Below, piece by piece: positions 4,721 through 32,914 of a stretch of 64,000 nucleotides of DNA (its first letter is position 1; every line of letters starts with the position of its first letter). Both the position numbers and the translations under genes were made by a program. This DNA comes from a virus. The stretch spans positions 1-64,000 of IMG/VR virus record IMGVR_UViG_3300013006_000024; one strand, 5' to 3'. Below the pieces are notes generated by a model. It did not search any database. It had not been told where the DNA came from and saw nothing but the letters and a program-made list of their open reading frames with translations.

Positions 4721-4881
4721 TGCTTTAGTTTATTTATAAAGCTGCCAACAATAATATACACCTTCTCCGTATCAAGACCTTTACCATCTGTAAGCTCGTT
4801 TACCCAATCTTTAACTGAAAGCTTACCATCGTCTTCTTTTTTTAGTACTTCAGGCCCGTCTATAAATTCTTTAAACTTCAT
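4717..4881 (-). CDS. Small hypothetical protein between queE and the P-loop kinase
   Basis: A 54-residue frame beginning MKFKEFIDGPEVLKK. Its ATG overlaps the queE stop as ATGA, and its TGA overlaps the kinase start as ATGA, so three genes are linked by four-base overlaps. This tight coupling is the main argument that it is real. Its N-terminus loosely resembles T4 capsid-targeting peptides but lacks the (L/I)xE site. Function unknown. Confidence 0.6.
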   Translation of the reverse strand: MKFKEFIDGPEVLKKEDDGKLSVKDWVNELTDGKGLDTEKVYIIVGSFINKLKQ

Positions 4882-5621
4882 ACCTTTAGGGCTTTATCCC
4901 AGATAACCAATTGTAATCTTGGACTGAATTTAAGATTATGTTTCTTACATAATTCTGCTACCATAACTGATTTTTCTGTATGCTCTTGTCGACTGCCGCA
5001 ACAAGGCATAAGCCATATTCTATTATATGGAATTCGAATTTCCGGATTTTGCATATACTTCTCTATTATCTCATTTAAATCGCTTTCATTATTAATAACA
5101 AATTTAAATCCTGATCCATTGTCAACATGCCACTTAAGTACTTGAGGTTTGTAGCGCTTCTCTTCAGGATCACCGTTGTTAGTTAATTTAGGCGATACAG
5201 TAAATGTAGCAGAATATTCCTTTACCCATATATTATCCGGCATAATAGTACCGTTAGTTTCAAAGTCAATATTAGGACAAAATGCATAACGAGCAACAAA
5301 CGCTTCCATAAGCTTTAAAAGCTGCTTTTGCTGTATAAGTGGCTCTCCACCGGTTATTTTTAATATAGCTCCGTCTTTGAGATAGCAGTTATATCGGTTC
5401 TGAGACATATATTCAAAAATCTCATCAAACGTTAACTTATTTTTTACCGACCAACTAACAAAACTATCACAGCCATTTGGTGAATCTGCAGACGCAAATC
5501 CTTTACATGTTAAGTTACACATTGAAAGTCTCATAAACACTGAAGGCCGACCTACATACTCACCTTCACCCTCTAACGTATAAAAAAGCTTATCGTCGCT
5601 AAGAAAAATAGTATTATCCAT
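4878..5621 (-). CDS. queE: 7-carboxy-7-deazaguanine synthase-like radical SAM protein
   Basis: A 247-residue protein. QueE converts 6-carboxytetrahydropterin to 7-carboxy-7-deazaguanine, the third step toward preQ0. The N-terminal FYTLEGEGEYVGRPSVFMRL matches the QueE family (substrate-contacting EGEG). Radical-SAM cysteines are C35, C39 and C51 followed by D52, and ITGGEPL (about residue 88) is the SAM-binding GGE motif. The third cysteine is 11 residues after the second instead of the usual two, which is unusual. It is first in a three-gene operon with a strong class A promoter. Confidence 0.88.
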   Translation of the reverse strand: MDNTIFLSDDKLFYTLEGEGEYVGRPSVFMRLSMCNLTCKGFASADSPNGCDSFVSWSVKNKLTFDEIFEYMSQNRYNCYLKDGAILKITGGEPLIQQKQLLKLMEAFVARYAFCPNIDFETNGTIMPDNIWVKEYSATFTVSPKLTNNGDPEEKRYKPQVLKWHVDNGSGFKFVINNESDLNEIIEKYMQNPEIRIPYNRIWLMPCCGSRQEHTEKSVMVAELCKKHNLKFSPRLQLVIWDKALKV

Positions 5622-6443: not shown

Positions 6444-7139
6444 TTAACGATTTATTCCCCACGATGTACCGCCATATAAATCTGACCAACCTGAAGTAAC
6501 CTTATTCTTTACCGGTGCTGGCTGTACACTTGATGAACCGGGTTTATTACTAATAGGTGGGGGGTTCTTAATAACCGACTCTAAATTAATACCTGTTGTT
6601 TCTGCAATATCTGCCATAAAATTCCTAATATGATTTTGCGGTGCACCTTGTGTCACAGTATTACCGGATTCAAAAGAATTTTGCACGTCAACTTTTATTG
6701 TATCGCTTGAAACTATTGCAGAGTTTTTATCATGCTCCCATACTTCAACCTTATCTACCCAACATCTATTGTTAGTAATGCTTCGAATATAATTGTCTGC
6801 TGTACCAAGACACCATTCCGCAGTTCTCTCTATACCTACACCATTCTCCATTATACGTAAATCGCAACCACCTGATGCATGTAATGATTTAAATCCATCT
6901 AATAATGGATCGTCAATTGCAATGCATAATGTATGATCAAATTGTTTCTCTAAAATATCCTTTAACCCCTTTAATCCACCGAAATCTACTACCCAATTCT
7001 TTTCATCTAATTCTGTACAACAAAACCAAAACTTAGCTTGTAAATTATAGCCGTGAATAAACTTGCAATGACTATCAGCCTTCCATTGTCTAAATGCACA
7101 ACTACCTAAATCAATAATCTTAGTACTTTCGTATTTCAT
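6444..7139 (-). CDS. queD: QueD-like 6-carboxytetrahydropterin synthase family protein with altered zinc site and C-terminal extension
   Basis: A 231-residue protein; typical QueD has about 120 residues. The pterin-synthase fold is visible at residues 1-140: C25 aligns with the catalytic cysteine, NWVVDFGGLK matches the conserved viDF segment, and FDHT (D68-H69) matches the catalytic dyad. Of the three canonical zinc histidines only H29 is obvious: HGH has become HGY and the first histidine region reads AFRQW. Residues about 141-231 form a low-complexity extension. In canonical enzymes the product feeds QueE. The changed metal site leaves the true activity open. Confidence 0.75.
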   Translation of the reverse strand: MKYESTKIIDLGSCAFRQWKADSHCKFIHGYNLQAKFWFCCTELDEKNWVVDFGGLKGLKDILEKQFDHTLCIAIDDPLLDGFKSLHASGGCDLRIMENGVGIERTAEWCLGTADNYIRSITNNRCWVDKVEVWEHDKNSAIVSSDTIKVDVQNSFESGNTVTQGAPQNHIRNFMADIAETTGINLESVIKNPPPISNKPGSSSVQPAPVKNKVTSGWSDLYGGTSWGINR

Positions 7140-8604: not shown

Positions 8605-8611
8605 TATTTAT
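8605..8611 (-). promoter_or_regulatory. Late promoter box ATAAATA
   Basis: ATAAATA on the minus strand, 5 nt before the ATG at 8599. Confidence 0.6.
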
Positions 8612-9432
8612 CCTATCAGATACCCCATTAACGTGGGGTAATCATAACCTTGTTCAGCTGCACCACCAAAATGGTAGTTTGAAGCCCACATGTCAATATA
8701 ATCACCCTGACTGCATTGTATTATGATGCTCCAACTGGTGCTCATGGGATGTGAATTACTGTTATGAACATAACACTGTCTTACATTATTTTTTCTTATT
8801 TCAAAAATACCGACACCAGAATTATTTTGACTATTCATATGCCCTGCTGTAAAATGATAATTACCGGCAATGGGTACATTGAATTGTTTATCTGTTAAAC
8901 TGTAGTGGCCACCCACATTTACTGGTGCGTAGTTAAAGGGAACCTTAATAAGTGTATTTCCTTGATTTCCGCCACCGCCTGTCATGCTAACTCTAAATAT
9001 GGGTTGATAGGGTATAGTTACATAACCTGCTGAACTTATTGTCATTTTTGCTGAATTGTTTGTTATGAATTGTGTGGCATGGGCTGTTCTTGAGCCAAAA
9101 TAAGATGCATTATCAAGTGTGCCGGCCACATCAGTTCTACCTGATGAAGAACCTTCAACACCACAATACAAGTTTGCGCCATTACCATTTAAATGCGAGT
9201 TTAACTGATGTTTTGTTACGGATGTGCTTTGAAATAAATTTGTTTCTTGAGGCGCCTGTATATGCAGTCTGGTAAAAGTTAATGGTGTAGTTGTTCCAAT
9301 TGCCACACACTCTGTATTCTGAAATAATGCACTTACCGGTACACCCAAGGTATTGGAACCTGTGCTGTAAGCAAGTAAATTATTACCAGCAGGTACACCT
9401 GGTGTCAATTGAGATATGGTTACGTCTGCCAT
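8608..9432 (-). CDS. Fibre/adhesin, MADTTIS-type N-terminus with C1q-like C-terminal domain
   Basis: A 274-residue protein. Residues 1-40 (MADVTISQLTPG...LLAYSTGSNTLGVPVSALFQ) are the shared N-terminal module, closest to the protein at 30804-31667. Residues about 145-274 look like a C1q/TNF-like jelly roll: FNVPIAGNYHFTAGHM, then FEIRKNNVRQCYV, then GDYIDMWASNYHFGG. C1q-like trimers at fibre tips bind receptors. The middle carries the FITNNSAKMTISSAGYV repeat unit common in phage fibres. The gene ends near the start of the next late unit. Confidence 0.7.
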   Translation of the reverse strand: MADVTISQLTPGVPAGNNLLAYSTGSNTLGVPVSALFQNTECVAIGTTTPLTFTRLHIQAPQETNLFQSTSVTKHQLNSHLNGNGANLYCGVEGSSSGRTDVAGTLDNASYFGSRTAHATQFITNNSAKMTISSAGYVTIPYQPIFRVSMTGGGGNQGNTLIKVPFNYAPVNVGGHYSLTDKQFNVPIAGNYHFTAGHMNSQNNSGVGIFEIRKNNVRQCYVHNSNSHPMSTSWSIIIQCSQGDYIDMWASNYHFGGAAEQGYDYPTLMGYLIG

Positions 9433-9488: not shown

Positions 9489-10142
9489 ATGTCTAAAGTA
9501 AAACTCGCTTTCGCTAATCACAATCATCCTCATACTCAAGAAGAAAGAGAACAAATAATTGAAAGAGCATCTAAGGCTTATGAAGCTTATATGGATGCAT
9601 TAGGTTATGATTGGAGAAATGATCCAAACAGTGATAATACCCCACATCGCGTGGCTAAGGCTTTCGTAGAAGACTTCGCATGGGGCTGTTATAGCAAGCC
9701 ACCGAAGATTACAGCTTTTGATAATATTGATCAATATGATGGAATGGTTTGTCAGAATAATATTAAATTAACCTCGCTTTGTTCCCATCATCATGCACCT
9801 TTTACCGGGGTAGCTCATGTTGCTTATATTCCTTCTAAAGAAGGTAAAGTTATTGGTCTGAGTAAGCTTAATCGTATTGTAGATTGGTTTGCTCGCCGTC
9901 CACAAGTACAAGAAAATCTTACTATGCAAATTCATGCGCATATCGATTTAGTATGCGAAAAGAATAATGGTGTAGCAGTAATGATTGAAGCTAATCATAC
10001 TTGTTGCTCTAATCGTGGTATTAGACATGATTCAACGATGCGGACAGCTAGAATGTCTGGTGCGTTCTTAGATAATAATGATAATTCTCGAGCTGAGTTT
10101 TATAAGTTTGTTGAATTTGCGCAGAATAAAAAGTTAATTTAA
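9489..10142 (+). CDS. folE: GTP cyclohydrolase I
   Basis: A 217-residue GTP cyclohydrolase I, converting GTP to 7,8-dihydroneopterin triphosphate, the entry step for both folate and 7-deazaguanine pathways. DNTPHRVAKAFVED is the family helix motif. The zinc and active-site motif SLCSHHHAPFTG lies at about residues 95-106, IGLSKLNRIVDWFARRPQVQE at about 130-150 is conserved, and HTCCSNRG supplies the second zinc cysteine. With queD, queE and queC it completes a preQ0 gene set. It is transcribed alone between minus-strand late units. Confidence 0.95.
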   Translation: MSKVKLAFANHNHPHTQEEREQIIERASKAYEAYMDALGYDWRNDPNSDNTPHRVAKAFVEDFAWGCYSKPPKITAFDNIDQYDGMVCQNNIKLTSLCSHHHAPFTGVAHVAYIPSKEGKVIGLSKLNRIVDWFARRPQVQENLTMQIHAHIDLVCEKNNGVAVMIEANHTCCSNRGIRHDSTMRTARMSGAFLDNNDNSRAEFYKFVEFAQNKKLI

Positions 10143-10945
10143 AAATCGCCTCTGTAATAACCACCGCCGTTATAATATCTACAACACATCCATAATTCTT
10201 GTGCAAACGGTCTATGTTCGTAAGGTGTAGCTACCGAGCCTCTCTCTAACTGTACACCGGTAATTTCAATATAATCGTTTGCATTAGATGCTGTACCTTG
10301 TGTATCCCAGAAAAATCCAACTAACATTTCACCTATTCCTGCTCCTACAGTACCAGTTAATTTATAAAAAGTACCGGTTGTCGTTAATTCGCTAGAAGTA
10401 AAACTTTTAAAAATAGCATTTGTTTGACCCGTCCAATTGTTACCAGCTGCTAAATTACCTGCTTGATCTACCCCTGTACCAGTAGTAACAGAAGTCCAAA
10501 CATAAGTACCGGAGAAGCTAGAGCCTTTTCTAAGCCAAAAAGAGAGGGTTATCTCTTGATTTGCTAGATCAAAACAATCAGTAGATTCTATTTGATTCCA
10601 TAATCTGTACTGCTCAGTTAAAGTAGAGCCTGATGGTTTTCCCGCTCTAATACAATATGGACGGCCACCGAAACCAGTTTGCCGAGTAATAATATTTATC
10701 GGAGAATTATTTTGACTAAAAGCCCACCTATCAGCAGTATAAGTTGAAGTTCCATTACCTGCAATATTTGTAAAGGTTGTACCTCTTTGCCAAACTATAG
10801 GGGAGCCATTTATTAAGCGATTTCTCGTACCTAATAAACTATTTGTAGAAAGTTTTGTAGTTGTATTACCATCACTCAGAGGTAAAAAATTTTCCGCTGA
10901 TAGCACTAAATTAGTTGTTAGCTGCGATATTGTTGTATCAGCCAT
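10139..10945 (-). CDS. Fibre protein, MADTTIS-type N-terminus with carbohydrate-binding-like domain
   Basis: A 268-residue protein. Residues 1-40 are the shared N-terminal module (MADTTISQLTTNLVLS). Residues about 40-260 have the layout of phage fibre carbohydrate-binding modules: NRLINGSPIVWQRGTTF, YTADRWAF, then ITGVQLERGSVATPYEHRPF near the C-terminus. It likely sits at a fibre tip and binds host polysaccharide. It overlaps the upstream retropepsin-like gene by 8 nt and is convergent with folE, overlapping by 4 nt. Confidence 0.7.
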   Translation of the reverse strand: MADTTISQLTTNLVLSAENFLPLSDGNTTTKLSTNSLLGTRNRLINGSPIVWQRGTTFTNIAGNGTSTYTADRWAFSQNNSPINIITRQTGFGGRPYCIRAGKPSGSTLTEQYRLWNQIESTDCFDLANQEITLSFWLRKGSSFSGTYVWTSVTTGTGVDQAGNLAAGNNWTGQTNAIFKSFTSSELTTTGTFYKLTGTVGAGIGEMLVGFFWDTQGTASNANDYIEITGVQLERGSVATPYEHRPFAQELWMCCRYYNGGGYYRGDF

Positions 10946-11585
10946 TGTTATCTACTTTCTTTTTCTTCTTAAAAACTATAAAAGGTCTTTTTGTTTGTGG
11001 GTTATATATCTTAAGAACATCTTTACCTTTAAATTTAGCTCCACCATGCTGGTTAACTATTAAAGTTTTTTGTTTGTTAGCAATATGACGGATAGCATTT
11101 TCACTAAAACTTGGTCTCATCCATTCTTTTGAAAGAGGATCTTTTTTATTAATAGCTATTACATTGTAACGAACTGATTCATTTACCTGTTTATTAACAT
11201 CAATCACTGCATTTAATTTCTTAAGAAAAGGTTCGCCTACTAAGATAGGATCTTCATTTTCAGAACGATCCGCTATGCTAAAAGGAACATCTTTATACTC
11301 TTTTCCGTTAATTTTAATATTGAGCTTTACTATAGGTCTATCTTCTTTAACCCCACTTCCAATATGTATCTTTATGTCACCCGCACGAGGTGCTTTCATT
11401 GGTTTACCATCTACAGTAGTGAAAGAAATGTTTTCACCGTCTTCAGAAATATCTACACCATGCAGAACATTATAGGCTTCATTACCACTATCAATTTTAG
11501 CCTTAAGCTTACCTAAGCCATTAATTTCGATTAATTCGTTTACACCAAACACTGGTTTGTTATAAAAATCTTTAAACGGTTCCAT
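10938..11585 (-). CDS. Retropepsin-like aspartic protease (RimB/ATP-dependent zinc protease-like)
   Basis: I start this at the ATG at 11585 because a late box lies 5 nt upstream; the same frame extends to 11657. The translation (215 residues) contains LGKLKAKIDSGNEAYNVLHG, where the retropepsin-like family has AKxDTGA, and later FSIADRSENEDPILVGEPFLKKLNAVIDV, matching the family's ADR...PvLlGr.fL pattern. The usual DTGA loop reads DSGN. It may process a virion protein, or act as a fold-only structural protein. It is co-transcribed with a fibre gene. Confidence 0.65.
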   Translation of the reverse strand: MEPFKDFYNKPVFGVNELIEINGLGKLKAKIDSGNEAYNVLHGVDISEDGENISFTTVDGKPMKAPRAGDIKIHIGSGVKEDRPIVKLNIKINGKEYKDVPFSIADRSENEDPILVGEPFLKKLNAVIDVNKQVNESVRYNVIAINKKDPLSKEWMRPSFSENAIRHIANKQKTLIVNQHGGAKFKGKDVLKIYNPQTKRPFIVFKKKKKVDNNG

Positions 11586-11590
11586 AATAT

Positions 11591-11597
11591 TATTTAT
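11591..11597 (-). promoter_or_regulatory. Late promoter box ATAAATA
   Basis: ATAAATA on the minus strand, 5 nt before the ATG at 11585; decides the start of the protease-like gene. Confidence 0.6.
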
Positions 11598-11676
11598 TGA
11601 TTTATAAACTGTTTTCATGTAACACCATAGTATGATAAATCTATTTGGAAAAAGCACATTTATCTCTTAATTTAGA

Positions 11677-11691: not shown

Positions 11692-12288
11692 ATGTTTGCT
11701 AATGATTATAATAATCTTAATGATCTATATGATAAAAAGATCATAAAAGAAAACGTTGGTCTTGGGACTCTAGCTGACAATGAGACTGTATCGCCCACAC
11801 CGGCCAGAGTTAAGAAGATACAAATGCCTCCTAAAAGATCTTGTGGTAACAATGAAGAACAAGAGCATTATAGCAAGAGTGAGGATTGTGAAGGTTATGA
11901 TCCTGCATCTTACGACAGCAATGGTCAAATGGCAAAACAGCTTCTTTTTAGATGTGCAAAAATTTCTGCAATGCTCCATGATATATTAGCAGGTAAAGAT
12001 AATGTTGAAGCTTGGGTTTTAAGCAAGATTACTAATGCACACGATCAGCTAGAGTCTGTATTCGGTTATGAAGATTATGAAGCCGCTAAGAATCCAATGC
12101 ATGGTACATGTGATGATGCAGGTAATTTAGAAGAAAATAATGAAGAAGAACTTTTTTCTGCAATTGCTGCAGGTGGTGATAAATTATTGACTAATCTTAA
12201 AACAGCATTAAGAAGAGAATCGAGAGAAAATTTAGAAAAAGTTTTATTTGAAACAATTCTTATCCTAGAAGAAAAAAATAAGAAATAA
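11692..12288 (+). CDS. Putative virion protein with N-terminal IKE site
   Basis: A 198-residue protein. N-terminal IKE (residues 18-20) resembles the prohead protease site. A helical domain (QLLFRCAKISAMLHDIL ... NVEAWVLSKITNAHDQLESV) resembles a small conserved phage domain of the MAKxL...LEAWVxxKIxxAxDxL type found in many marine phages, of unknown function. The C-terminal 40 residues are helical and charged. It is alone on the plus strand with its own late box. Confidence 0.5.
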   Translation: MFANDYNNLNDLYDKKIIKENVGLGTLADNETVSPTPARVKKIQMPPKRSCGNNEEQEHYSKSEDCEGYDPASYDSNGQMAKQLLFRCAKISAMLHDILAGKDNVEAWVLSKITNAHDQLESVFGYEDYEAAKNPMHGTCDDAGNLEENNEEELFSAIAAGGDKLLTNLKTALRRESRENLEKVLFETILILEEKNKK

Positions 12289-12945
12289 TTATTTTAGTTT
12301 CGTATTGAAGAGATTGTAGATTTTAGGATCAAATTTACCTAGTATTTGAGCGATATATTCTTTTCTTTGTTGCTCATTAGCAGCTTTATACATATTTCTT
12401 AGCTCTGTAGCACTAGTTATATTCTTACCACCTATATTAAACTGGATAGTGCCAGGTGAGTATATGTAGCCGTGGCCGCCATCTTCTCTAAAAGGATACA
12501 TTTCATTTAAACTTCTAAAGGGCTGAAAGTATGTTGGCTTGCCTTTTTTGGTCATACCGAATGCAAATCTAGGATCTTCTTTCATATCCTTTTCACCTAC
12601 AACATAAACTACTTTAGCTACATTAGGATCATAGTCTTTTAAAATTTCTAAAGGCTTATAAGGTTGTTTAACGAGCTTAATTTCTTGCTCAGGAACACCT
12701 GCTGCTAACATAATCTGCTTTTTTTCATTAAAATTAAAAGGGTATCTGCTTGGATCTTTACCAGCATCTTTAGCAGGCATATCGGATGTAGCTATAAAAA
12801 AATCAGCACCTGGAAATTGCTTTTTAGCCATATCAAAAAACTTTTTATGACCAATATGAAAGGGTTGAAAGCGACCCGGGAAAATAACTATAAGGTTATT
12901 CTTCTGAGGCATTAAAATTTCATTTACTAAATCATCGAATTTCAT
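12289..12945 (-). CDS. Nucleotidyltransferase (NMN adenylyltransferase/cytidylyltransferase-like)
   Basis: A 218-residue protein. FPGRFQPFHIGHKKFF (residues 22-37) contains the HxGH ATP/CTP-binding motif, and NITSATELRNMYK near residue 180 matches the ISSTxxR motif. The family includes NMN adenylyltransferases of NAD synthesis; the substrate is not certain here. The catalytic domain is preceded by MKFDDLVNEILMPQ, a short helical leader like those of capsid-targeted proteins, though VNE replaces the strict (L/I)xE. It overlaps the ligase-like gene by 4 nt. Confidence 0.8.
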   Translation of the reverse strand: MKFDDLVNEILMPQKNNLIVIFPGRFQPFHIGHKKFFDMAKKQFPGADFFIATSDMPAKDAGKDPSRYPFNFNEKKQIMLAAGVPEQEIKLVKQPYKPLEILKDYDPNVAKVVYVVGEKDMKEDPRFAFGMTKKGKPTYFQPFRSLNEMYPFREDGGHGYIYSPGTIQFNIGGKNITSATELRNMYKAANEQQRKEYIAQILGKFDPKIYNLFNTKLK

Positions 12946-14156
12946 ATAGGCATTCCTGGCGTTAATCTTCCTTGTAAAATATCCTTACTATAGGGCGGAG
13001 CAGTTTGATAGTTTGGGGTGTTATTAACCCTATCCATATTTGCTAACTGTCCTCTAATACCGTATTCTTCATTTTCACCTCTATTAGCAAATTTACCAGC
13101 TTCTTTTCCTGTAATAAAGCTCCCTGTTATTTTAACTGGGTTAGCTGATATAGTGTTATCCCTTACAACTATACCCTCCTGATCACCAATGCTACCAAGC
13201 TTTGAATTGGCAGCTTGCTTAATCTTGTCACCTAGCTTAATTGTAGCATAATAAAACAATGCACCATTAATAGCCTTTTCAATATCTTTCTTATTATTAC
13301 CAATATAGGTATGCATAGGTACACCATTAATTATATTCTTAAAATTCTCTAGACTCATAGCGCTAATAGATTTACCAGAAGCTAGTTTAATTTTATCAGC
13401 TCGAGGATTAACAGCCTTAGTTAACCATTCACTTAAAGGCTTGGTAACAATATTCTTTGTGTCGTAGTTAACTGTAAACTTTGAACTTAATACATCATTA
13501 AAATTTACATTACCCTGTTCAACAGTAAACTCGTGTTCCACATCAAAGCCAGACTTCTTAGCAATAGGATTAACTTTAAATATTAAAGATAATAATGCTT
13601 TTTTATCATATGGTATTTCGCGTGATGCTCTTCTCACACTACCACGTACCGGGCTCTTAACTTCTATAATCTCATTTAACCCGTGTATAGCTAAAAAGTT
13701 ATTAGCATAACCAATTACATTGGTTGCGCCTTTCACAAATTCCATATTAAAAAGTATTTTTGGATTATTCCACATTTTAAGTTTTTTAAGCTCCGGCTCT
13801 ATGCTGGGAATAGCAGTATTAAAAATATTGAGTACAGTCTTACCTGTTTCTATCATACCATGGCCTTCAGGAAAGCGAGATGTTAACTTAGCAATTGTTA
13901 CACCCTCTACATCTTCAGGTTTATTAGAACCTCTATCCATAGCAAACTCTTTATTACCTTCTGCATTGGTAATTAATTTAATGGAAGCATTTACACCGTC
14001 AATCTTAACAGAAGAAGGTTTTTTCTTAAGACTATTAACAAGCTTATTAAAAATATTAATTAGATCTTTCCCTGTACGTGCATTAGGTAGATCAAAAGGA
14101 TGTGCCATGTGACCGGCTACCCCGCCTTCTAATAAAAATTGTGCAAATGTTATCAT
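12942..14156 (-). CDS. ATP-dependent ligase-like nucleotidyltransferase with N-terminal LLE site
   Basis: A 404-residue protein with covalent-nucleotidyltransferase motifs in order: motif I VKIDG (lysine 51), motif III-like FNMEFV, motif IV QEGIVVRD and motif V-like VKITGSF. These define the DNA/RNA ligase and capping-enzyme superfamily. DNA or RNA as substrate cannot be settled. The N-terminus MITFAQFLLEGG is a near-ideal T4-type capsid-targeting peptide, with LLE at residues 8-10 followed by G. Coupled (ATGA) to both neighbours, it is the third gene of a four-gene late operon. Confidence 0.75.
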   Translation of the reverse strand: MITFAQFLLEGGVAGHMAHPFDLPNARTGKDLINIFNKLVNSLKKKPSSVKIDGVNASIKLITNAEGNKEFAMDRGSNKPEDVEGVTIAKLTSRFPEGHGMIETGKTVLNIFNTAIPSIEPELKKLKMWNNPKILFNMEFVKGATNVIGYANNFLAIHGLNEIIEVKSPVRGSVRRASREIPYDKKALLSLIFKVNPIAKKSGFDVEHEFTVEQGNVNFNDVLSSKFTVNYDTKNIVTKPLSEWLTKAVNPRADKIKLASGKSISAMSLENFKNIINGVPMHTYIGNNKKDIEKAINGALFYYATIKLGDKIKQAANSKLGSIGDQEGIVVRDNTISANPVKITGSFITGKEAGKFANRGENEEYGIRGQLANMDRVNNTPNYQTAPPYSKDILQGRLTPGMPI

Positions 14157-15643
14157 GGATTAACAGTCACCTGTACTGACGGGCCAAATTTATCTATTGA
14201 ATTACCAATAGACGCTTTGACTTGATTTAAAAAATTATATGCGCTTTCTATTTTTTCTCCAACCGAATTACCTGGAAATGTGAAAGTAACTAAATTTTTA
14301 GTTTTATTATTACCAAAAATAATATACTTAAATTCTTCTACATAATGATATAATACTAAATGTATTGCTGCTAAAAGTCTCAATCTAGTATCGCTAGAAG
14401 CTAAAATTGCATTTTTATTAGATTTTATTTTATTTAAAAGATATGTCTCTAGTTCAGTTTTTAAAGATTGACCTTTACCGGATTCTAATGAATAACTTCT
14501 GCAAGCTACTAAACCTTTTGCAAGTTGTTCATCAGTTAATGTTTGCCAGTTATTAAAAAATGCTTCGAATGCAGGCTTAAATGTACCTTTTATTTCACCA
14601 GCTTTTTTTCGCGTAAATTCTTCTATTTGTGATTTAACAGATGTTTTGAGCTGTGATTTCCACTTTGCAGTTGTAGAATCAGTAGGTATTACTTGATCTA
14701 TGGTTGATATTAATTGCTGTAATGTTTTATCATCGTTAAGTGCATTCTGAACTTGCTTTAAATAATTAATAATCTGTTCATCTTTTCCTCTTTTTGTTAT
14801 CCAGCTTTCAATTGCTTTGTAAGCCATTTCTTTTGCTCTATCTAGTATTTTTGCTGAAAGCTGCTGTGTGTTAGGCGAAGAAGCAAATATTTTAGATAAT
14901 TCTTCTGATGAAGAAACACCTGCATAGCCATCACCGCCAAGCCGGGCTTCTGAGGCCTTGTATTCAACTTCACCAATGCCATCAAAATATAAATCGCCTT
15001 TTTCTCCTTTAATTGCATCTGAAATTAAAGTTAAAGCTATTTCACCTTTCCCAACATAAACTTTAGCCTTAAAATCATAATTATAAATCTTATCCATTAC
15101 AGATATAGCGTCCTGAGGATTTACAAAGAGCTGTTTAAATTTATCCGGAATAAGATCATTGAAATTATAAGCAGCAACCGCACCATTTGAACCTAAACTT
15201 TTTCCAATTAAAACAGTACGAACAAGATTATCTTTATCTTTTTGTAAGCTAATTAGCTCATAGAACTTATCTGCATTTAAATTCGCTTCATCGAAATAAC
15301 TCTGTATTGACGTTAAAACTTGTTTCCATCTTGGATTAGCTTCATTCCAGCGATCTATTTCTAAAGCTTTCTGAATAAGTGAATCGACAGAAGCTTCACC
15401 CTCCGGTGTTTTTACTGATTTTTGTCTAGTAAGTGTGTTAATTAATTTATTAGCTAATTTATCACTAATTTCAAACTCATGCATCTGACCATGAGGGGGG
15501 TCCTGCTGTACTACAACATCTGCATTTTCTCGATAAATTAAAACTCTGGAGCGCGGAAGAATCGGTACAGGTTTAGAGAAGGATTCGTTTAAATAGATGT
15601 CTTTAAGAGACTTGTATGGTTTTTTAACCTTAGGCTTACGCAT
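14153..15643 (-). CDS. Putative PD-(D/E)XK-like protein in late operon, N-terminal LNE site
   Basis: A 496-residue protein. Residues 200-240 contain E201, then D217, then E227-Y-K229 followed by ASEARLGG, an arrangement like the E...D...ExK active site of PD-(D/E)XK nucleases. The rest is mainly helical and not recognised. LNE at residues 18-20 follows a basic leader, again resembling a prohead protease site. Nuclease activity is an inference from one local motif. It is the second gene of the late operon. Confidence 0.45.
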   Translation of the reverse strand: MRKPKVKKPYKSLKDIYLNESFSKPVPILPRSRVLIYRENADVVVQQDPPHGQMHEFEISDKLANKLINTLTRQKSVKTPEGEASVDSLIQKALEIDRWNEANPRWKQVLTSIQSYFDEANLNADKFYELISLQKDKDNLVRTVLIGKSLGSNGAVAAYNFNDLIPDKFKQLFVNPQDAISVMDKIYNYDFKAKVYVGKGEIALTLISDAIKGEKGDLYFDGIGEVEYKASEARLGGDGYAGVSSSEELSKIFASSPNTQQLSAKILDRAKEMAYKAIESWITKRGKDEQIINYLKQVQNALNDDKTLQQLISTIDQVIPTDSTTAKWKSQLKTSVKSQIEEFTRKKAGEIKGTFKPAFEAFFNNWQTLTDEQLAKGLVACRSYSLESGKGQSLKTELETYLLNKIKSNKNAILASSDTRLRLLAAIHLVLYHYVEEFKYIIFGNNKTKNLVTFTFPGNSVGEKIESAYNFLNQVKASIGNSIDKFGPSVQVTVNP

Positions 15644-15644
15644 A

Positions 15645-16100
15645 TCATTTTGTTTTAAGATTTGGATCGTCGCTATAACGCTGCATTATATTAAGAATCT
15701 CTTTATACTTTGCCATAAAATTATTTTCATTTATAGATTGTTCAAACTTTCTAAAATGAGGGTTAGTTAATTTAGTAGGATTATCTTCAAAATTTTCATT
15801 CTGTGCAATAGATTGCTGTAAAGCTTCTCTCACATCTGTAGCAGTCTCTCTATTAATAGGCTTTGTGAAAAGAGTATCAATTGAACCAGGAGGGATGTTC
15901 ATAACTAATGCTTTTGCAAGCATTCGAACAATATCTACATAACCTTCAGGCGGGAGAGCATCAGGCTCCTCCTTAACCTGAGACTGAGGTCTTGAGGGAT
16001 CGGGAATAGCAGATTGAGCTTCAGGCATTGCTGCATCTTCAGGCTGATCTTGCTCATTAAAGAGATTCATATACTTAGATATTTTGTCGTTAAAGCTCAT
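15645..16100 (-). CDS. Hypothetical late protein, first gene of the packaged-enzyme operon
   Basis: A 151-residue acidic protein with a P/Q/E-rich linker (about residues 18-50) after a helical leader (MSFNDKISKYMNLFNEQ). FNE at residues 14-16 is close to, but not exactly, the (L/I)xE site. The C-terminal part is helical. It resembles prohead-core or internal head proteins in composition. It is transcribed from a late box 5 nt upstream, ahead of three enzyme-like genes. Confidence 0.5.
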   Translation of the reverse strand: MSFNDKISKYMNLFNEQDQPEDAAMPEAQSAIPDPSRPQSQVKEEPDALPPEGYVDIVRMLAKALVMNIPPGSIDTLFTKPINRETATDVREALQQSIAQNENFEDNPTKLTNPHFRKFEQSINENNFMAKYKEILNIMQRYSDDPNLKTK

Positions 16101-16105
16101 ATAGT

Positions 16106-16112
16106 TATTTAT
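16106..16112 (-). promoter_or_regulatory. Late promoter box ATAAATA
   Basis: ATAAATA on the minus strand, 5 nt before the ATG at 16100; likely drives 16100-12289. Confidence 0.62.
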
Positions 16113-17248
16113 TGTGGATACGTATAACTTATTATAATCTTACCATTAGAACCAGCAGCATTTACACCTTTACCACCTTGCCCAGCGCCTCCTCTATCCG
16201 AATCATTAGGATTACCGGGTAGCCCGGTGTTATTGTCAGGATTATCTCCAGCTACTGTGTTAATATTACTAGATAATCCACCTGTATACCCGGATCCACC
16301 GCCCCCACCACCACTAGCAGTCCGTATATAATAGCCATATCCGCCTCCACCCCCGTAGTACCCCCCTCCACCACCCCCACCTGGACCATAGCCACCAGAT
16401 GGCTGACCTTTTCCGCCCTGCAACTGAGCTCCAATATATAAAGCATCAGAAGTGTTTTGCCCTGCTGCTCCACCAGCAGATTGTGTACCTCTCTTACCGC
16501 CAGATGCACCCCAATAATTACCCTCACCACCTCCACCGCTATCTAATCCGGATGCACCACCGCCTGCTCCTCCCTTAAGACCTCCTGCTTCCCCAGCCCC
16601 GCCTCCACCGCCACCTGCAATTGCAATTGCATTTGCAAAAGTTTTACTTACCAGGAATATACCAGAATAACCACCACCTCCACCAGAGCCGTATGTTAAG
16701 TTGTAAGATGCATCACCAACACTACCTCCACCGTTGTAACCGCCTATGTGTGTACTAGAGGCTCCTCCTCCAACAGAAATAATATATACTTGACCTGATG
16801 TAACGGTTTTAGTACCGCTTGTATAGCCACCTCCACCTCCAGCTGTATTAGAGCCTACAGTCGAACCGCCTGCACCCCACATTTTAACAGATAATGAAGT
16901 AATACCTGCAGGCACTATAAAACTAACATCTAATCCAGTATAATCATATACTGTTGTTACAGTACCTGTTGACGATGTAGCTTGTGCTAATCCAAGCCAA
17001 TATCCATTATTGTATATTTCTAAAGTATTAAGAGAAGTATTAAACCTTAACATTCCGGAGCTCGGAGCACCCGGTCTTTGTGCAGTTGTACCAGCAGGAA
17101 TAGGTAGAGCGCCTCCAATATTACCGGTAGCAGTAATAATTCCGCTTACCGGTATACCAGATGTAACACCGTCAACAGAAATAGGTACTATAGCACCGGT
17201 ATTAGTTGTCAAAATTCTAGATAAACCGGAAATGGTAGTATCAGCCAT
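16109..17248 (-). CDS. Fibre protein, MADTTIS-type N-terminus with glycine-rich C-terminal domain
   Basis: A 379-residue protein. Residues 1-45 are the shared N-terminal module (MADTTISGLSRILTTNTGAI). After TTVYDYTGLDVSFIVPAG the sequence becomes a glycine-rich domain with repeated GGGGG blocks (about residues 120-370), ending GKIIISYTYP. Glycine-rich adhesins of this kind occur at the tips of T4-like tail fibres (gp38-like) and in bacterial surface proteins. The DNA of this stretch is clearly more GC-rich than its surroundings because of the Gly codons. Confidence 0.7.
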   Translation of the reverse strand: MADTTISGLSRILTTNTGAIVPISVDGVTSGIPVSGIITATGNIGGALPIPAGTTAQRPGAPSSGMLRFNTSLNTLEIYNNGYWLGLAQATSSTGTVTTVYDYTGLDVSFIVPAGITSLSVKMWGAGGSTVGSNTAGGGGGYTSGTKTVTSGQVYIISVGGGASSTHIGGYNGGGSVGDASYNLTYGSGGGGGYSGIFLVSKTFANAIAIAGGGGGGAGEAGGLKGGAGGGASGLDSGGGGEGNYWGASGGKRGTQSAGGAAGQNTSDALYIGAQLQGGKGQPSGGYGPGGGGGGGYYGGGGGYGYYIRTASGGGGGGSGYTGGLSSNINTVAGDNPDNNTGLPGNPNDSDRGGAGQGGKGVNAAGSNGKIIISYTYPQ

Positions 17249-18270: not shown

Positions 18271-18522
18271 TTATTTAGAAAGCTTTAAGACTAATCCAGG
18301 TAATGGACGTCGCTGTACAAAAAATTTCTTCTTCTTTTTACCAGCACCTAATACTTTTGGAACCCTTGAATCATTTGGCGCGTAATTGTCTTTATGACCG
18401 GGAAATGCATTCCCAGTAGCTCCGGAATCAACCGTACCAAATACGCTTGTAGCTCCTCCTGCTACATTCATTTCACTTAATGTTTTATAAAAAGCCTGTT
18501 CAAATAAACCTATTGATTTCAT
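18271..18522 (-). CDS. Small late protein with N-terminal LSE site
   Basis: An 83-residue protein. Its N-terminus MKSIGLFEQAFYKTLSEMN has LFE (6-8) and LSE (15-17), both fitting the prohead protease pattern. It is followed by a Gly/Ala-rich segment and a very basic patch (KVLGAGKKKKKFFVQRR). Short proteins of this layout, with SRVPKVLG near the middle, recur in T4-like phages; an internal head protein is likely. The gene start faces the plus-strand early operon. Confidence 0.5.
   Translation of the reverse strand: MKSIGLFEQAFYKTLSEMNVAGGATSVFGTVDSGATGNAFPGHKDNYAPNDSRVPKVLGAGKKKKKFFVQRRPLPGLVLKLSK
18272..18278 (-). promoter_or_regulatory. Late-type box variant CTAAATA
   Basis: CTAAATA on the minus strand, 4 nt before the GTG at 18267, inside the end of the preceding gene. 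Confidence 0.35.
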
Positions 18523-28986: not shown

Positions 28987-30105
28987 ATGAGTAAAGATCT
29001 TAATAAAATATTCGCGTCGCTAGACAAGCTTAATAGCGAGGCATCGATGTTAAATGAAAATGCACTTAGTAAAGTTGATGAGTGGTTTGATACTGGATGT
29101 TACGCTCTTAACGCTATTCTCGGCGGTAGTTGTCGTAGTGGTGGCGTACCTAAGGGAAGAATAACCGGTTTCTCTGGACCTAGTCAGACAGGTAAGACAT
29201 TTATTGTAAATAAGATTCTTGCTACTGCGCAGAAGAAAGGTCTTACTCCTGTTATATTTGATACCGAGATCGCTATTGATGAGAATAGTACAAAGGGAGT
29301 CGGATTAGACCCGGAAGGCACAAAATATGTACCTGTTGATACCATTGATCAGTGCCGTAATCAGATTAGTGCTTTTCTTGATAGCGTAATCGAAAATAAC
29401 GCGAGAGGTAAGTTTATTATTAGTATTGATAGTTTGGGTAACTTAGCCTCACAAAAAGAGCTTGATGACGTAGCTAAAGATAAATCTGCATCAGATATGG
29501 GTCTTCGCGCAAAGTCTTTAAAGAGTATGTTCCGAACGTTAACCTTTAAAGCTGCTAAGGCTGGTGTTACGATTCTATTTACAAACCATACTTACGAAGA
29601 CCCTGCTTCGATGTTTCCAAGTCTTGTAAAAAATCAGGCTGGAGGCTCAGGCCCGGTGTATATGGCTAGTATTCTAGTACAGCTTGCTAAGCGTCATGAG
29701 AAGGAAGGTGAAGGTGATTCCATGGATGCAGATGATAAGAAGCTTGCAGAAGCCAATAAGTACAGTGGTACAACACTTCGTGCGCTAACTGTTAAGAATC
29801 GCTTTCTCCCACCGTTTTTAGAGACAGAAATGTACCTTTCCTTTAAGACTGGTCTTAACAAGTATAGCGGGTTGCTTGGTATGGCGACTGCAAGAGGTAT
29901 CATTGAACAAAATGGTGCAACATATACTGTTGGTATTACTAGCGGTAAGTATAAAAAAGGTGATAAACTAGGTTATGCAAAGACTTTTGCAAAAGACCCC
30001 GCTTTCTACGAGGAGTTTATTATTCCAGAACTCGACAAGCGCTTAACAGAGGAATACAAATACAACGTTAATGAAGCGCCAAGCGAAGAAGAGCCCATCG
30101 CGTAA
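28987..30105 (+). CDS. uvsX: UvsX recombinase (RecA family)
   Basis: A 372-residue RecA-like strand-exchange protein. GFSGPSQTGKTFIVNK (about residues 61-76) holds Walker A, FIISIDSLGNLASQKE is Walker B, and ILFTNHTYEDPA and KNQAGGSGPVYMAS fit the RecA L1/L2 region. T4 UvsX has about 390 residues. The acidic C-terminus (APSEEEPIA) overlaps the queC start by 35 nt. Confidence 0.93.
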   Translation: MSKDLNKIFASLDKLNSEASMLNENALSKVDEWFDTGCYALNAILGGSCRSGGVPKGRITGFSGPSQTGKTFIVNKILATAQKKGLTPVIFDTEIAIDENSTKGVGLDPEGTKYVPVDTIDQCRNQISAFLDSVIENNARGKFIISIDSLGNLASQKELDDVAKDKSASDMGLRAKSLKSMFRTLTFKAAKAGVTILFTNHTYEDPASMFPSLVKNQAGGSGPVYMASILVQLAKRHEKEGEGDSMDADDKKLAEANKYSGTTLRALTVKNRFLPPFLETEMYLSFKTGLNKYSGLLGMATARGIIEQNGATYTVGITSGKYKKGDKLGYAKTFAKDPAFYEEFIIPELDKRLTEEYKYNVNEAPSEEEPIA

Positions 30106-30814
30106 AGCAGTTGTTCCTATTTCCGGTGGAATGGACAGTACAGTACTGTTACATTTAGCTGCGAGCCAGTATGATGAGATTATAGCAATTAGCTATAATT
30201 ACGGTCAGAAGCACAAGGACAAAGAGCTCAATTGTGCTGCTCTGCAGGTTGAATCAATCAAAGTACCAGTTGAGTATAAATGGATAGATTTACCGTTTTT
30301 CAAGAGTATTTGTGAGGTCTCTTCACTTCTTAATACTAAAATTGCTGTAGCTAAGGCTAAAGATGTGATGGGAGATCCACAGACGGTGAACTATGTTCCG
30401 TATAGGAACCTAATGCTTCTTAGTATATCACTAGCAATAGCGGAGAACGCTGGGGCTAGCACTGTTTTTCATGGTGCTGCACAAGCCGATAGCGTTGCAG
30501 GGTTCTGGGATGGCAGCGAAGAATTTCTGGAGCAAATCAATAAAGTATCAGCTTTGAACCGTAGAAATAAAATTATAGTACAAGCACCGTTAATCGACAA
30601 ATCTAAGGAAGAAATCATAAAACTCGGTATTAAGCTTGGTGTAGATTTTAGTAAGACTTGGACTTGTTATGAAGGAGAAGAGCAAGCTTGCGGTGAATGT
30701 ACTGCGTGCTCTTTGCGAATAAAAGGCTTTATAGATGCGAGGTATATAGACCCGTTAAACTACAAGATATCGTTGCCTTGGGAAAAATACAATTGTAAAC
30801 AGATTAGTATTTAA
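30071..30814 (+). CDS. queC: 7-cyano-7-deazaguanine (preQ0) synthase
   Basis: A 247-residue enzyme converting 7-carboxy-7-deazaguanine to preQ0 with ATP and ammonia. ISGGMDSTVLLH (about residues 17-28) is the PP-loop, YNYGQKHKDKEL and VPYRNLMLLSISLAIAENAGA are QueC hallmarks, and TWTCYEGEEQACGECTAC carries the four zinc cysteines. The N-terminus may be shorter than drawn because the first residues lie within uvsX. It is the last step of the preQ0 set and is coupled to uvsX. Confidence 0.92.
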   Translation: MKRQAKKSPSRKAVVPISGGMDSTVLLHLAASQYDEIIAISYNYGQKHKDKELNCAALQVESIKVPVEYKWIDLPFFKSICEVSSLLNTKIAVAKAKDVMGDPQTVNYVPYRNLMLLSISLAIAENAGASTVFHGAAQADSVAGFWDGSEEFLEQINKVSALNRRNKIIVQAPLIDKSKEEIIKLGIKLGVDFSKTWTCYEGEEQACGECTACSLRIKGFIDARYIDPLNYKISLPWEKYNCKQISI

Positions 30815-31667
30815 TTACAGGCAGCATCGCTAGATTTCTAGGCCTTATTGCACCGCCACCCCAACTGCCGTCATTAATCCAATCACCACCATTAGCAACA
30901 TTACCTGGACCAGCTGTACTGATAGTCCCGGCATAATCTGATTTAGCTGCTGTATCCAACCCAATAAGAGTCCTCCCATCTGACGGGCTTGATCCTGCAG
31001 CAATACTGTGTACATAGTTCTCTGAGCTTGGAGTGTTAAAAGCCATAACAGTAGATTTTTGATAGCTGCCAAATGCTCTATCTGTATCTACACCTCTACT
31101 GTTATCCCAACCTCTTAAAAACTCTCCTCTCAAGTCAGGCAGTTTACCAGCTACACCGTATGTGGTACCTAATAATGTAAATAGCGCGCTAAAATTATAA
31201 GTTATCCCCTGTACAACACCGTTTCCATTTGGAACAGTATCACCATTGCAAACCAAATAACCTGAAGGTGTTGTAGATGTTGCCATGTAAAAAACTGCTC
31301 CTACTGGTACTGCTACAGGAACATTTTTCAGTGTCAAACCTCCAGTAATATTAATATTTCCTGCCGTATCAATGCGCATACGTTCAGTGTTATTTGTTAC
31401 TAAAGAAAGAGGATGGTTAGTATATGAACCAAATCTATTTTCCAAGCTAGTAGTATTTGCTTGAATGTAAACGGATTGCGAATTGAGCGATATATTTGTA
31501 CTTGCCCATATTGTAGGGTTTGACGAGTTGACTAAATAAAAAGAACTACTGCCTTGAAACAAGGCACTTACAGGCGTTGCAAGTGTGTCGCTCCCTGTGC
31601 TGTATGGCAGCAAATGCCCCGGAGAGGGGTTAGCGCGCGCTAAATCAGATATTGTTGTATCAGCCAT
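30804..31667 (-). CDS. Fibre protein, MADTTIS-type N-terminus with phage tail collar domain
   Basis: A 287-residue protein. Residues 1-40 share LLxYSTGSxTLxxPVSALFQ with the C1q-type fibre at 8608-9432. The middle has LSLVTNNTERMRIDTAGNI, and residues about 120-287 form a collar domain: PSGYLVCNGDTV, LFTLLGTTYG, KLPDLRGEFLRGWDN, ending RPRNLAMLPVIKY. It is convergent with queC and overlaps it by 11 nt. No late box is seen directly upstream, so it is probably read through from 32402. Confidence 0.82.
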   Translation of the reverse strand: MADTTISDLARANPSPGHLLPYSTGSDTLATPVSALFQGSSSFYLVNSSNPTIWASTNISLNSQSVYIQANTTSLENRFGSYTNHPLSLVTNNTERMRIDTAGNINITGGLTLKNVPVAVPVGAVFYMATSTTPSGYLVCNGDTVPNGNGVVQGITYNFSALFTLLGTTYGVAGKLPDLRGEFLRGWDNSRGVDTDRAFGSYQKSTVMAFNTPSSENYVHSIAAGSSPSDGRTLIGLDTAAKSDYAGTISTAGPGNVANGGDWINDGSWGGGAIRPRNLAMLPVIKY

Positions 31668-32410: not shown

Positions 32411-32417
32411 TATTTAT
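32411..32417 (-). promoter_or_regulatory. Late promoter box ATAAATA
   Basis: ATAAATA on the minus strand, 8 nt before the ATG at 32402. Confidence 0.55.
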
Positions 32418-32914
32418 GATATTTTAATTATATAATGCAGGCTGATGTAAGGGGGGAGTGTAGCCACCGTAACCGGGTGAGTGTGTGATCCTCCATAGCT
32501 TGCAATTCCGGTTAAGTATGTTGCACAGGCTGGCTGATTTTTTCCACCGCATGCCGCACCTGGCGCGTATGTACTTGATCTAAAAGAGCTTTGTTGTGTG
32601 GAGTTTAAAGATGTTGCCCCCACAGTTCCTGTTACAGAAGCTTGCCCTCCAGTTGTATTGAGAGGATAAGTACTTCCTGCACCCACAGCAAATCGATCGC
32701 GCAAATCTGGCCTGCCTGCTTGCCCATCACACAATGCCCAACCTGAGGGTATGCTAGCTCCATTGTAATTAGACCACATGACTATAGTGCCAACGGGCAC
32801 TCCCCCGATGTCTGATATGGACACCCTTCCAGTTGTTGTTCCATCTGACACAGGAACAGACAAGCTCCCACTGGGGGTCATTGGACTAAGCGCAGAGATG
32901 GTTGTATCAGCCAT
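32414..32914 (-). CDS. Short fibre protein, MADTTIS-type N-terminus with tail collar domain
   Basis: A 166-residue protein. Residues 1-35 are the shared module (MADTTISALSPMTPSGSLSV). The remainder is a minimal collar domain: VPVGTIVMWSNYNGASIPSGWALCDG, RPDLRDRFAVGAGS, GSHTHPVTVATLPPYISLHYIIKI. Its codon use is less AT-rich than the surrounding genes, which hints at recent acquisition. It directly follows a truncated copy of the same N-terminal module. Confidence 0.8.
   Translation of the reverse strand: MADTTISALSPMTPSGSLSVPVSDGTTTGRVSISDIGGVPVGTIVMWSNYNGASIPSGWALCDGQAGRPDLRDRFAVGAGSTYPLNTTGGQASVTGTVGATSLNSTQQSSFRSSTYAPGAACGGKNQPACATYLTGIASYGGSHTHPVTVATLPPYISLHYIIKIS

What the first reader, a model, noticed from the sequence alone, without database searches (positions are those of the whole stretch)
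12289..16112. Late operon encoding a possibly packaged ligase, nucleotidyltransferase and nuclease-like protein
Four tightly spaced genes read from one late box encode an acidic leader-bearing protein, a 496-residue protein with an E...D...ExK arrangement, a ligase-superfamily protein with a textbook LLE/G leader, and an HxGH nucleotidyltransferase with a similar leader. Enzymes made late and carrying head-targeting peptides would be delivered with the DNA. Possible roles are genome end repair, defence evasion, or restoring NAD in the next host.
Basis: inference. Interest (0 to 1): 0.72.

Follow-up and report, generated by a model that had tools for sequence, protein, structure and literature searches.

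The report
Phage head-targeted nuclease, ligase, nucleotidyltransferase cassette
A late gene cassette of uncultivated T4-like phages encodes a fast-diversifying nuclease-like protein, a ligase-like enzyme and a nucleotidyltransferase that carry the address tags T4 uses to load proteins into its head, so the virus probably injects these enzymes together with its DNA.

Summary
Four minus-strand genes (16100-12289) overlap or abut behind one T4-late-type box; the box is kept before P4 in 22 of 31 relatives tested (22 of the 24 nearest) and never found before P2 or P1. P4 is leader-bearing, P3 has E..D..ExK, P2 has ligase-superfamily motifs, P1 has HxGH. Comparative data extend it. (1) P2 relatives exceed 500 in IMG/VR and occur as separate genes or fused to P1 in either order; [LIV]xE directly precedes the ligase core in 39/40 leader forms and 29/29 internal junctions. 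(2) A T4-CTS-like start (MKTFKQF type) occurs at N-termini of several unrelated proteins, never internally in 243,463 residues. (3) P3 keeps its leader (60% identity) while the whole protein averages 24%, against 63-70% for P1, P2, P4; P3 bodies keep a PD-(D/E)XK-like signature. (4) T4-like cyanophages carry the same ligase-to-nucleotidyltransferase pair (P2 resembles DUF6267); their nucleotidyltransferase has a CTS-like leader, and such proteins were found in virions by mass spectrometry (literature). Packaging is likely, though undemonstrated here. Function stays open: the known NAD+ salvage route is weakened (no NadV found); nuclease and ligase folds were not confirmed by structure search.

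The parts
16106..16113 (-). T4-late-type promoter box AATAAATA, 5 nt before the P4 start; no such box before P3, P2 or P1
   Evidence: Sequence; box before P4 in 22/31 relatives (22/24 near ones), 0/71 before P2, 0/22 before P1. 26 of 111 ORFs of the record have such a box, including tail sheath and tube genes.
15645..16100 (-). P4, 151 aa, Asp/Glu-, Pro- and Gln-rich protein with leader MSFNDKISKYMNLFNE/Q; first gene of the cassette
   Evidence: homologues in 40 ORFs of related loci; [LIVMF]xE followed by A/Q/G/S/D/N near the N-terminus in 25/35.
14153..15643 (-). P3, 496 aa, hyperdiverse nuclease-like cargo with conserved leader KKPYKSLKDIYLNE/SFSKPVP.LPR
   Evidence: E201, D217, E227, K229 invariant in 15 relatives; mean identity 0.24 overall versus 0.60 for the leader; D...ExK...R(L/I/M)G type pattern also in unalignable bodies. 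Foldseek found no PDB match.
14957..15043 (-). PD-(D/E)XK-like catalytic motif of P3 (E201 ... GD 216-217 ... ExK 227-229)
   Evidence: alignment A2; AF2 model gives helix 201-206, strands 218-220 and 224-229, helix 240-254.
12942..14156 (-). P2, 404 aa, divergent ligase-superfamily (covalent nucleotidyltransferase) protein, related to cyanophage DUF6267
14127..14156 (-). P2 leader MITFAQFLLE with predicted gp21-type cleavage between E10 and G11
   Evidence: AF2 pLDDT below 50 for residues 1-15, ordered core thereafter.
12289..12945 (-). P1, 218 aa, HIGH-superfamily nucleotidyltransferase (NMNAT-like) with leader MKFDDLVNE
   Evidence: PF01467 33.2 bits over cut-off 21; NCBIfam best hits after the general domain are NMN adenylyltransferases, below cut-offs; HxGH at residues 30-33 (12858-12847), ITSATELR motif near the C-terminus.

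Best explanation
This is a late cassette of internal head proteins of a T4-like phage. The four proteins are made from one late promoter and carry N-terminal capsid-targeting leaders that draw them into the prohead core. A gp21-type prohead protease trims the leaders at [LIV]xE sites, and may also separate the domains when ligase and nucleotidyltransferase are fused. The enzymes are then ejected into the next host with the DNA. P2 and P1 form one functional pair: P1 is an NMNAT-like adenylyltransferase and P2 an AMP-transferring ligase-superfamily enzyme, probably acting on nucleic-acid ends or nicotinamide nucleotides early in infection. P3 is a PD-(D/E)XK-type nuclease whose body diversifies fast behind a constant leader, as expected for an arms-race effector against host or rival DNA. 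Shown here: gene order, late box, leader modularity, motif conservation, P1-P2 linkage. Inferred: packaging, cleavage, injection, all biochemical activities and the biological roles.
For: Synteny P4-P3-P2-P1 in about 25 loci. Single conserved late box. Ligase and nucleotidyltransferase occur separate, fused ligase-first and fused nucleotidyltransferase-first. [LIV]xE directly before the ligase core in 39/40 leader forms and 29/29 internal junctions, in a stretch the P2 model leaves disordered. Strict CTS-like start M[KIMR][TS][FY]x[EQ][FYL] at 32 distinct N-termini of P2, P1, a retropepsin-like protein, an MCP-arm mimic and others; zero internal occurrences in 243,463 residues; T4 IpII and IpIII begin MKTYQEFIAE/A. 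Leader swap in L025, where a P3-type leader heads the ligase. gp21-type protease in 6/8 related records; relatives' major capsid proteins show matching xE/A or xE/S sites. Minus-strand ORFs of the record carry N-terminal [LIV]xE[AGS] in 8/34 versus 1/68 on plus. Cyanophage nucleotidyltransferases start MKKFSAFLSE/A and MKSFSQFLTE/T and follow DUF6267 genes in several phages; such proteins were found in virions. P3 24% versus leader 60% identity.
Against: No virion proteomics exists for this clade. The window's own record lacks the protease, probably because it is incomplete. The simple [LIV]xE[AGS] statistic is only about twofold above lambda and T7 N-termini (23% versus 11-12%). The P1 leader site is followed by I, not A/G/S. 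No profile or fold search confirmed the ligase or the nuclease at significance. The nucleotidyltransferase-first fusions often sit beside recombination genes rather than in this cassette and have a changed HxGH, yet keep the internal [LIV]xE. No NadV. CsCl-purified virions in the cited papers could carry contaminants, as PMC10665884 itself says.
Confidence: 0.6

Rival explanations
1. The leaders are not targeting signals: [LIV]xEGG is part of the ligase fold or of an N-terminal helix used for complex formation, and the enzymes act inside the producing cell, late in infection.
For: The LxEGG motif is retained inside nucleotidyltransferase-first fusions that often lie next to SbcCD/gp46-47-like genes and outside the late cassette. 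GG is invariant.
Against: The stretch is low-confidence in the AF2 model; the same leader type heads unrelated proteins; T4 internal proteins and the cyanophage nucleotidyltransferase share it; cyanophage nucleotidyltransferases were detected in virions.
Confidence: 0.2
2. P1 and P2 restore or recycle NAD+ in the new host against NAD-depleting defences, as in phage NAD+ reconstitution.
For: P1 is closest to NMN adenylyltransferases; cyanophage authors propose an NAD role for the virion protein.
Against: No NadV/NAPRTase in 7 records, whereas published work says NadM-bearing phages also carry NadV (PMC9503650); the role of a ligase-like partner is unexplained; NMNAT cut-offs are not reached.
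Confidence: 0.25
3. P1 and P2 repair RNA (for example cleaved tRNA) or seal and cap nucleic-acid 5' ends, using the adenylyl chemistry common to both enzyme classes.
For: Motif I KIDGVN resembles the KxxGxN of RNA ligase 2; a few weak PF09414 RNA_ligase hits; archaeal RNA ligase and mRNA capping enzymes are among weak fold matches. Phage RNA ligases are known counter-defence repair enzymes (PMC7824862, PMC9503650).
Against: hhalign against an RNA ligase 2 profile is negative; no kinase or phosphatase partner was recognised in the cassette.
Confidence: 0.3
4. P3 is a structural or scaffold-associated protein whose motif is coincidental, its variability reflecting relaxed constraint.
For: No convincing Pfam, PHROG or PDB match.
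Against: E, D, ExK are invariant in 15 otherwise divergent relatives, and unalignable bodies show a similar pattern.
Confidence: 0.2

Closest known systems
T4 internal head proteins IPI, IPII, IPIII (CTS-tagged, ejected; IPI* blocks GmrSD)
   Same: Short N-terminal leader of the MKTYQEFIAE/A type ending in a gp21 site; diverse bodies behind a conserved leader
   Different: T4 IPs are small; here large putative enzymes, one slot hyperdiverse and nuclease-like
DUF6267 (PF19782) plus cytidylyltransferase (T4-GC190, phrog_395) of T4-like cyanophages
   Same: Same gene order or fusion, same HxxHPxD...KxDG...EGxV...K motif order, nucleotidyltransferase with CTS-like leader; such nucleotidyltransferases reported in virions
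   Different: P2 does not hit PF19782; in the cyanophages examined the ligase-like protein lacks a leader; no P4 or leader-bearing P3 recognised beside it
NadM / NMN adenylyltransferase
   Same: GRFQPFHxGH and I(S/T)SATELR motifs; best NCBIfam family hits after the general domain
   Different: Below curated cut-offs; no Nudix domain recognised; no NadV partner found
T4 RNA ligase 2 and ATP-dependent DNA/RNA ligases
   Same: KxDGxN-like motif I, E (III), EGxV (IV), K (V)
   Different: No significant profile or fold match; extra N-terminal HxxHPxD motif and large insert before motif IV
PD-(D/E)XK nucleases
   Same: E...D...ExK in helix-strand-strand order
   Different: No family or fold match; long helical C-terminal part

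Membership tests
T4-type CTS-tagged internal head proteins | 10-20 residue N-terminal leader shared by unrelated proteins | tested here: met
   strict motif at 32 N-termini of several families, 0 internal; for the P3 leader; L025 leader swap
T4-type CTS-tagged internal head proteins | gp21-type site [LI]xE before A/G/S at the leader end | tested here: met
   P2 39/40 and 29/29; P3 22/28 and P4 25/35 by a looser pattern; P1 only partly (E followed by I)
T4-type CTS-tagged internal head proteins | Phage encodes a gp21-type prohead protease (S77) | tested here: inconclusive
   Present in 6/8 related records; not in the window's own 105-kb record, in which I also found no portal or capsid gene and which is probably incomplete
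T4-type CTS-tagged internal head proteins | Late transcription | tested here: met
   Late box before P4 conserved in 22/31 relatives, 22/24 near ones; sequence evidence only
T4-type CTS-tagged internal head proteins | Present and trimmed in virions, ejected | not testable with these tools
   Only distant cyanophage nucleotidyltransferases reported in virions
Ligase / covalent nucleotidyltransferase superfamily | Motif I KxDG and motifs III, IV, V | tested here: met
   K51, D53, G54, E139, E327, G328, K342 invariant in 49 sequences
Ligase / covalent nucleotidyltransferase superfamily | Significant profile or fold similarity to a known ligase | tested here: inconclusive
   PF09414 only E about 0.02-0.05; Foldseek PDB ligases E above 0.1; hhalign to RNA ligase 2 negative
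DUF6267 (PF19782) | Match to the Pfam model | tested here: not met
   P2 has no Pfam hit at E up to 1, while the Syn9 protein scores 1.1e-98
DUF6267 (PF19782) | Co-linear HxxHPxD, KxDG, EGxV, K motifs and pairing with a nucleotidyltransferase | tested here: met
   hhalign score 26 versus 16-19 for controls (weak); BFVD hit to an S-PM2 protein E 1.2e-4
HIGH-superfamily NMN adenylyltransferase | HxGH and ISxTxxR-type motifs, PF01467 above cut-off | tested here: met
HIGH-superfamily NMN adenylyltransferase | Curated NMNAT model above cut-off | tested here: not met
PD-(D/E)XK nuclease | Invariant E..D..ExK in the alpha-beta-beta order | tested here: met
PD-(D/E)XK nuclease | Fold match | tested here: not met
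   Foldseek PDB: no match below E 1.3; the model is moderate (pLDDT 79.5, 15 sequences), so this is weak negative evidence
Phage NAD+ salvage by NadV plus NadM | NadV/NAPRTase partner | tested here: not met
   0 of 7 records; all records may be incomplete

The most novel reading that the evidence does not exclude
A whole class of uncultivated T4-like phages injects a three-enzyme kit: a hyperdiverse nuclease that destroys non-phage DNA, plus a ligase-nucleotidyltransferase pair that protects or repairs phage nucleic acids. In some lineages the pair is made as a polyprotein cut apart inside the head by the prohead protease. The phage's predicted 7-deazaguanine pathway could mark its own DNA as exempt from the nuclease.
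Probability: 0.25. Interest if true: 0.85.

Novelty: new variant of a known kind. Interest (0 to 1): 0.62.

Why it matters
T4 internal proteins are known mainly as small proteins, one of them an anti-restriction inhibitor. If virions of abundant aquatic phages carry large enzymes, including a fast-evolving nuclease, then enzyme delivery at the moment of infection is a broader strategy. The [LIV]xE leader also gives a sequence handle for predicting injected proteins in uncultivated phages, and the P2/DUF6267 family, of unknown function in hundreds of cyanophage records, gains a testable function and partner.

Tried and rejected
RNA ligase 2 membership of P2 by profile: hhalign with T4 Rnl2 alone and with 8 sequences gave nothing. 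PDB sequence search with P2 and its profile: no hit. Foldseek of P2 against PDB: ligases and capping enzymes only at E above 0.1. Foldseek of P3: nothing. PADLOC: no match for the four proteins. A simple [LIV]xE[AGS] count looked strong within the loci, but lambda and T7 controls showed a high N-terminal background, so I rely on the strict CTS motif, leader swaps and junction conservation instead. The A1 profile found nothing in four cyanophage genomes. I looked for a cultured carrier: only Microcystis phage Mel-JY01 and two huge metagenomic phages had clear homologues. Relatives in prokaryote genomes are 7 contigs, all from metagenome or uncultured assemblies.
Full report
WHAT IS THERE. Reading on the minus strand, P4 (16100-15645), P3 (15643-14153), P2 (14156-12942) and P1 (12945-12289) form a tight cassette with one 1-nt gap and two 4-nt overlaps. 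A T4-late-type box, AATAAATA, sits 5 nt before P4. In relatives the box is kept before P4 in 22 of 31 distinct sequences; it is missing in 2 of the 24 nearest and in all 7 of the ligase-first fusion clade. It is never found before P2 (0/71) or P1 (0/22). The window is part of a 105,162-base virus record with terminase, contractile sheath, tube and tape-measure genes.

P1. PF01467 (33.2 bits, cut-off 21), GRFQPFHIGH and ITSATELR motifs. NCBIfam's best hits after the general domain model are NMN adenylyltransferases, all below their cut-offs. HxGH is kept in separate genes and in ligase-first fusions, but reads GxHH or SxHH in nucleotidyltransferase-first fusions, so activity may differ there.

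P2. A longer fused relative found Microcystis phage Mel-JY01 and a huge metagenomic phage, and Mel-JY01's own protein found one more. In 49 aligned relatives, K51, D53, G54, E139, E327, G328 and K342 are invariant, as is GHMAHPFD. The AF2 model is good (pLDDT 82.5, pTM 0.77), with residues 1-15 and 356-404 disordered. PDB fold matches are weak, but RNA ligase, mRNA capping enzymes and DNA ligase 1 are among them. BFVD matches are strong to uncharacterised or cytidyltransferase-annotated phage proteins, with a weaker one to S-PM2.

LINKAGE OF P1 AND P2. Relatives show three architectures: separate overlapping genes, ligase-first fusions (about 600 aa) and nucleotidyltransferase-first fusions (mostly about 565 aa). 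Fusion in both orders is strong evidence that the two act together. [LIV]xE stands directly before the ligase core in 39/40 leader forms (the exception is a truncated, insertion-bearing gene) and in 29/29 internal junctions. By eye, seven of eight distinct ligase-first junctions keep an [LV]xE just before the nucleotidyltransferase core (sequences).

LEADERS. T4 IpII and IpIII start MKTYQEFIAE/A. A strict motif of this type occurs at 32 distinct N-termini in the loci, from P2, P1, a retropepsin-like protein, a small protein mimicking the capsid-protein N-arm, and others, and never in 243,463 internal residues. Most of the 32 are P2 sequences; the argument rests on the other families sharing it. 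In L025 a P3-type leader is joined directly to the ligase. Six of eight related records carry a gp21-type protease, with scaffold-like and capsid-protein-like genes beside it; the capsid proteins show CFE/A, CME/A, LNE/A or VVE/S at the expected place (gene and site assignment by eye). In the window's record, N-terminal [LIV]xE[AGS] is found in 8/34 minus-strand but 1/68 plus-strand ORFs. Caution: lambda and T7 N-termini reach 11-12% for the same pattern, so the raw count is weak evidence.

P3. E201, G216-D217, E227 and K229 are invariant in 15 relatives. Mean pairwise identity among 22 loci is 0.70 (P1), 0.69 (P2), 0.63 (P4) but 0.24 for P3, whose first 28 residues still reach 0.60; only 51 of 231 body pairs are detectably similar. 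Bodies that do not align still show D...(E)xK, mostly followed by R(I/L/M)G. No family or fold match was found, so 'nuclease' is a motif-based prediction.

CULTURED COUNTERPARTS. In Syn9, S-SSM6b, S-MbCM25 and S-CAM1 a DUF6267-type gene is directly followed by the nucleotidyltransferase; S-PM2 has a comparable arrangement. DUF6267 shares the HxxHPxD, KxDG, EGxV, K order with P2, although P2 does not hit the Pfam model and the profile comparison is weak (score 26 against 16-19 for controls). Cyanophage nucleotidyltransferases start MKKFSAFLSE/A (Syn9), MKSFSQFLTE/T (P-SSM2), MKLFNQFFKE/A (S-CRM01). Published mass spectrometry found NMNAT- or cytidylyltransferase-like proteins in cyanophage virions (PMC3037559, PMC9602691, PMC10665884); the last paper warns that contamination is possible. 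I did not check that the proteins detected are the very ones in the phages I read. T4 internal proteins are described as diverse proteins sharing only the CTS (PMC3012670), and T4 CTS propeptides as 10-20 residues (PMC5694885).

MECHANISM. I commit to capsid-targeted, ejected enzymes (about 0.7 for packaging), P1-P2 as one adenylyl-transfer unit, and P3 as a diversifying nuclease (about 0.7). The NAD-restoration role is weakened by the lack of NadV in seven records, all possibly fragments, given the published statement that NadM-bearing phages also have NadV (PMC9503650). Roles in RNA repair, NAD supply or end processing cannot be separated here.

VERDICT. It is a new variant of the T4 internal-protein theme.

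Noticed in passing
window 18271-18522 (-); also L069 4146-4403, L024 4765-5022, L096 8462-9400: Small proteins with a leader ending in xE followed by a sequence resembling the major capsid protein's N-terminal arm (VAGGATSVFG...GNAFPG...) and a Lys/Arg-rich tail: possible capsid-lattice mimics.
   Followed up: partly
window 10938-11657 (-): Retropepsin-like protein (AKIDSGNEAYNVLHG; PF05618 1.6e-5, just under cut-off) syntenic with the cassette, with CTS-like starts such as MQTFKEFY or MKTFKQYIQE in relatives.
   Followed up: partly
window 11692-12288 (+): Convergent leader-bearing gene next to P1, with homologues in 37 ORFs of related loci, function unknown.
   Followed up: partly
window 4878-5621, 6444-7139, 9489-10142, 30071-30814: Likely preQ0 / 7-deazaguanine pathway (QueC E 2.7e-59, PTPS/QueD 9e-18; QueE-like and FolE-like by eye), suggesting modified phage DNA.
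   Followed up: partly
window 8608-9432, 10139-10945, 16109-17248, 30804-31667, 32414-32914: Several separate genes share the N-terminus MADTTIS or MADVTIS with different bodies: possibly exchangeable tail-fibre parts.
   Followed up: no
L058 6567-9041, L059 1540-4014: An in-frame insertion with endonuclease-like look splits the LLTEGGAA / GHMAHPFD junction of the fused enzyme; intron, intein or homing gene not decided.
   Followed up: no
L116 291-968 (P-SSM2): A PD...EVK nuclease-like gene lies two genes before the nucleotidyltransferase in P-SSM2, hinting at a similar grouping in a cyanophage.
   Followed up: no
L038, L042, L067 and similar: Nucleotidyltransferase-first fusions often lie beside SbcCD/gp46-47-like genes rather than in the late cassette, with HxGH changed to GxHH.
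   Followed up: partly
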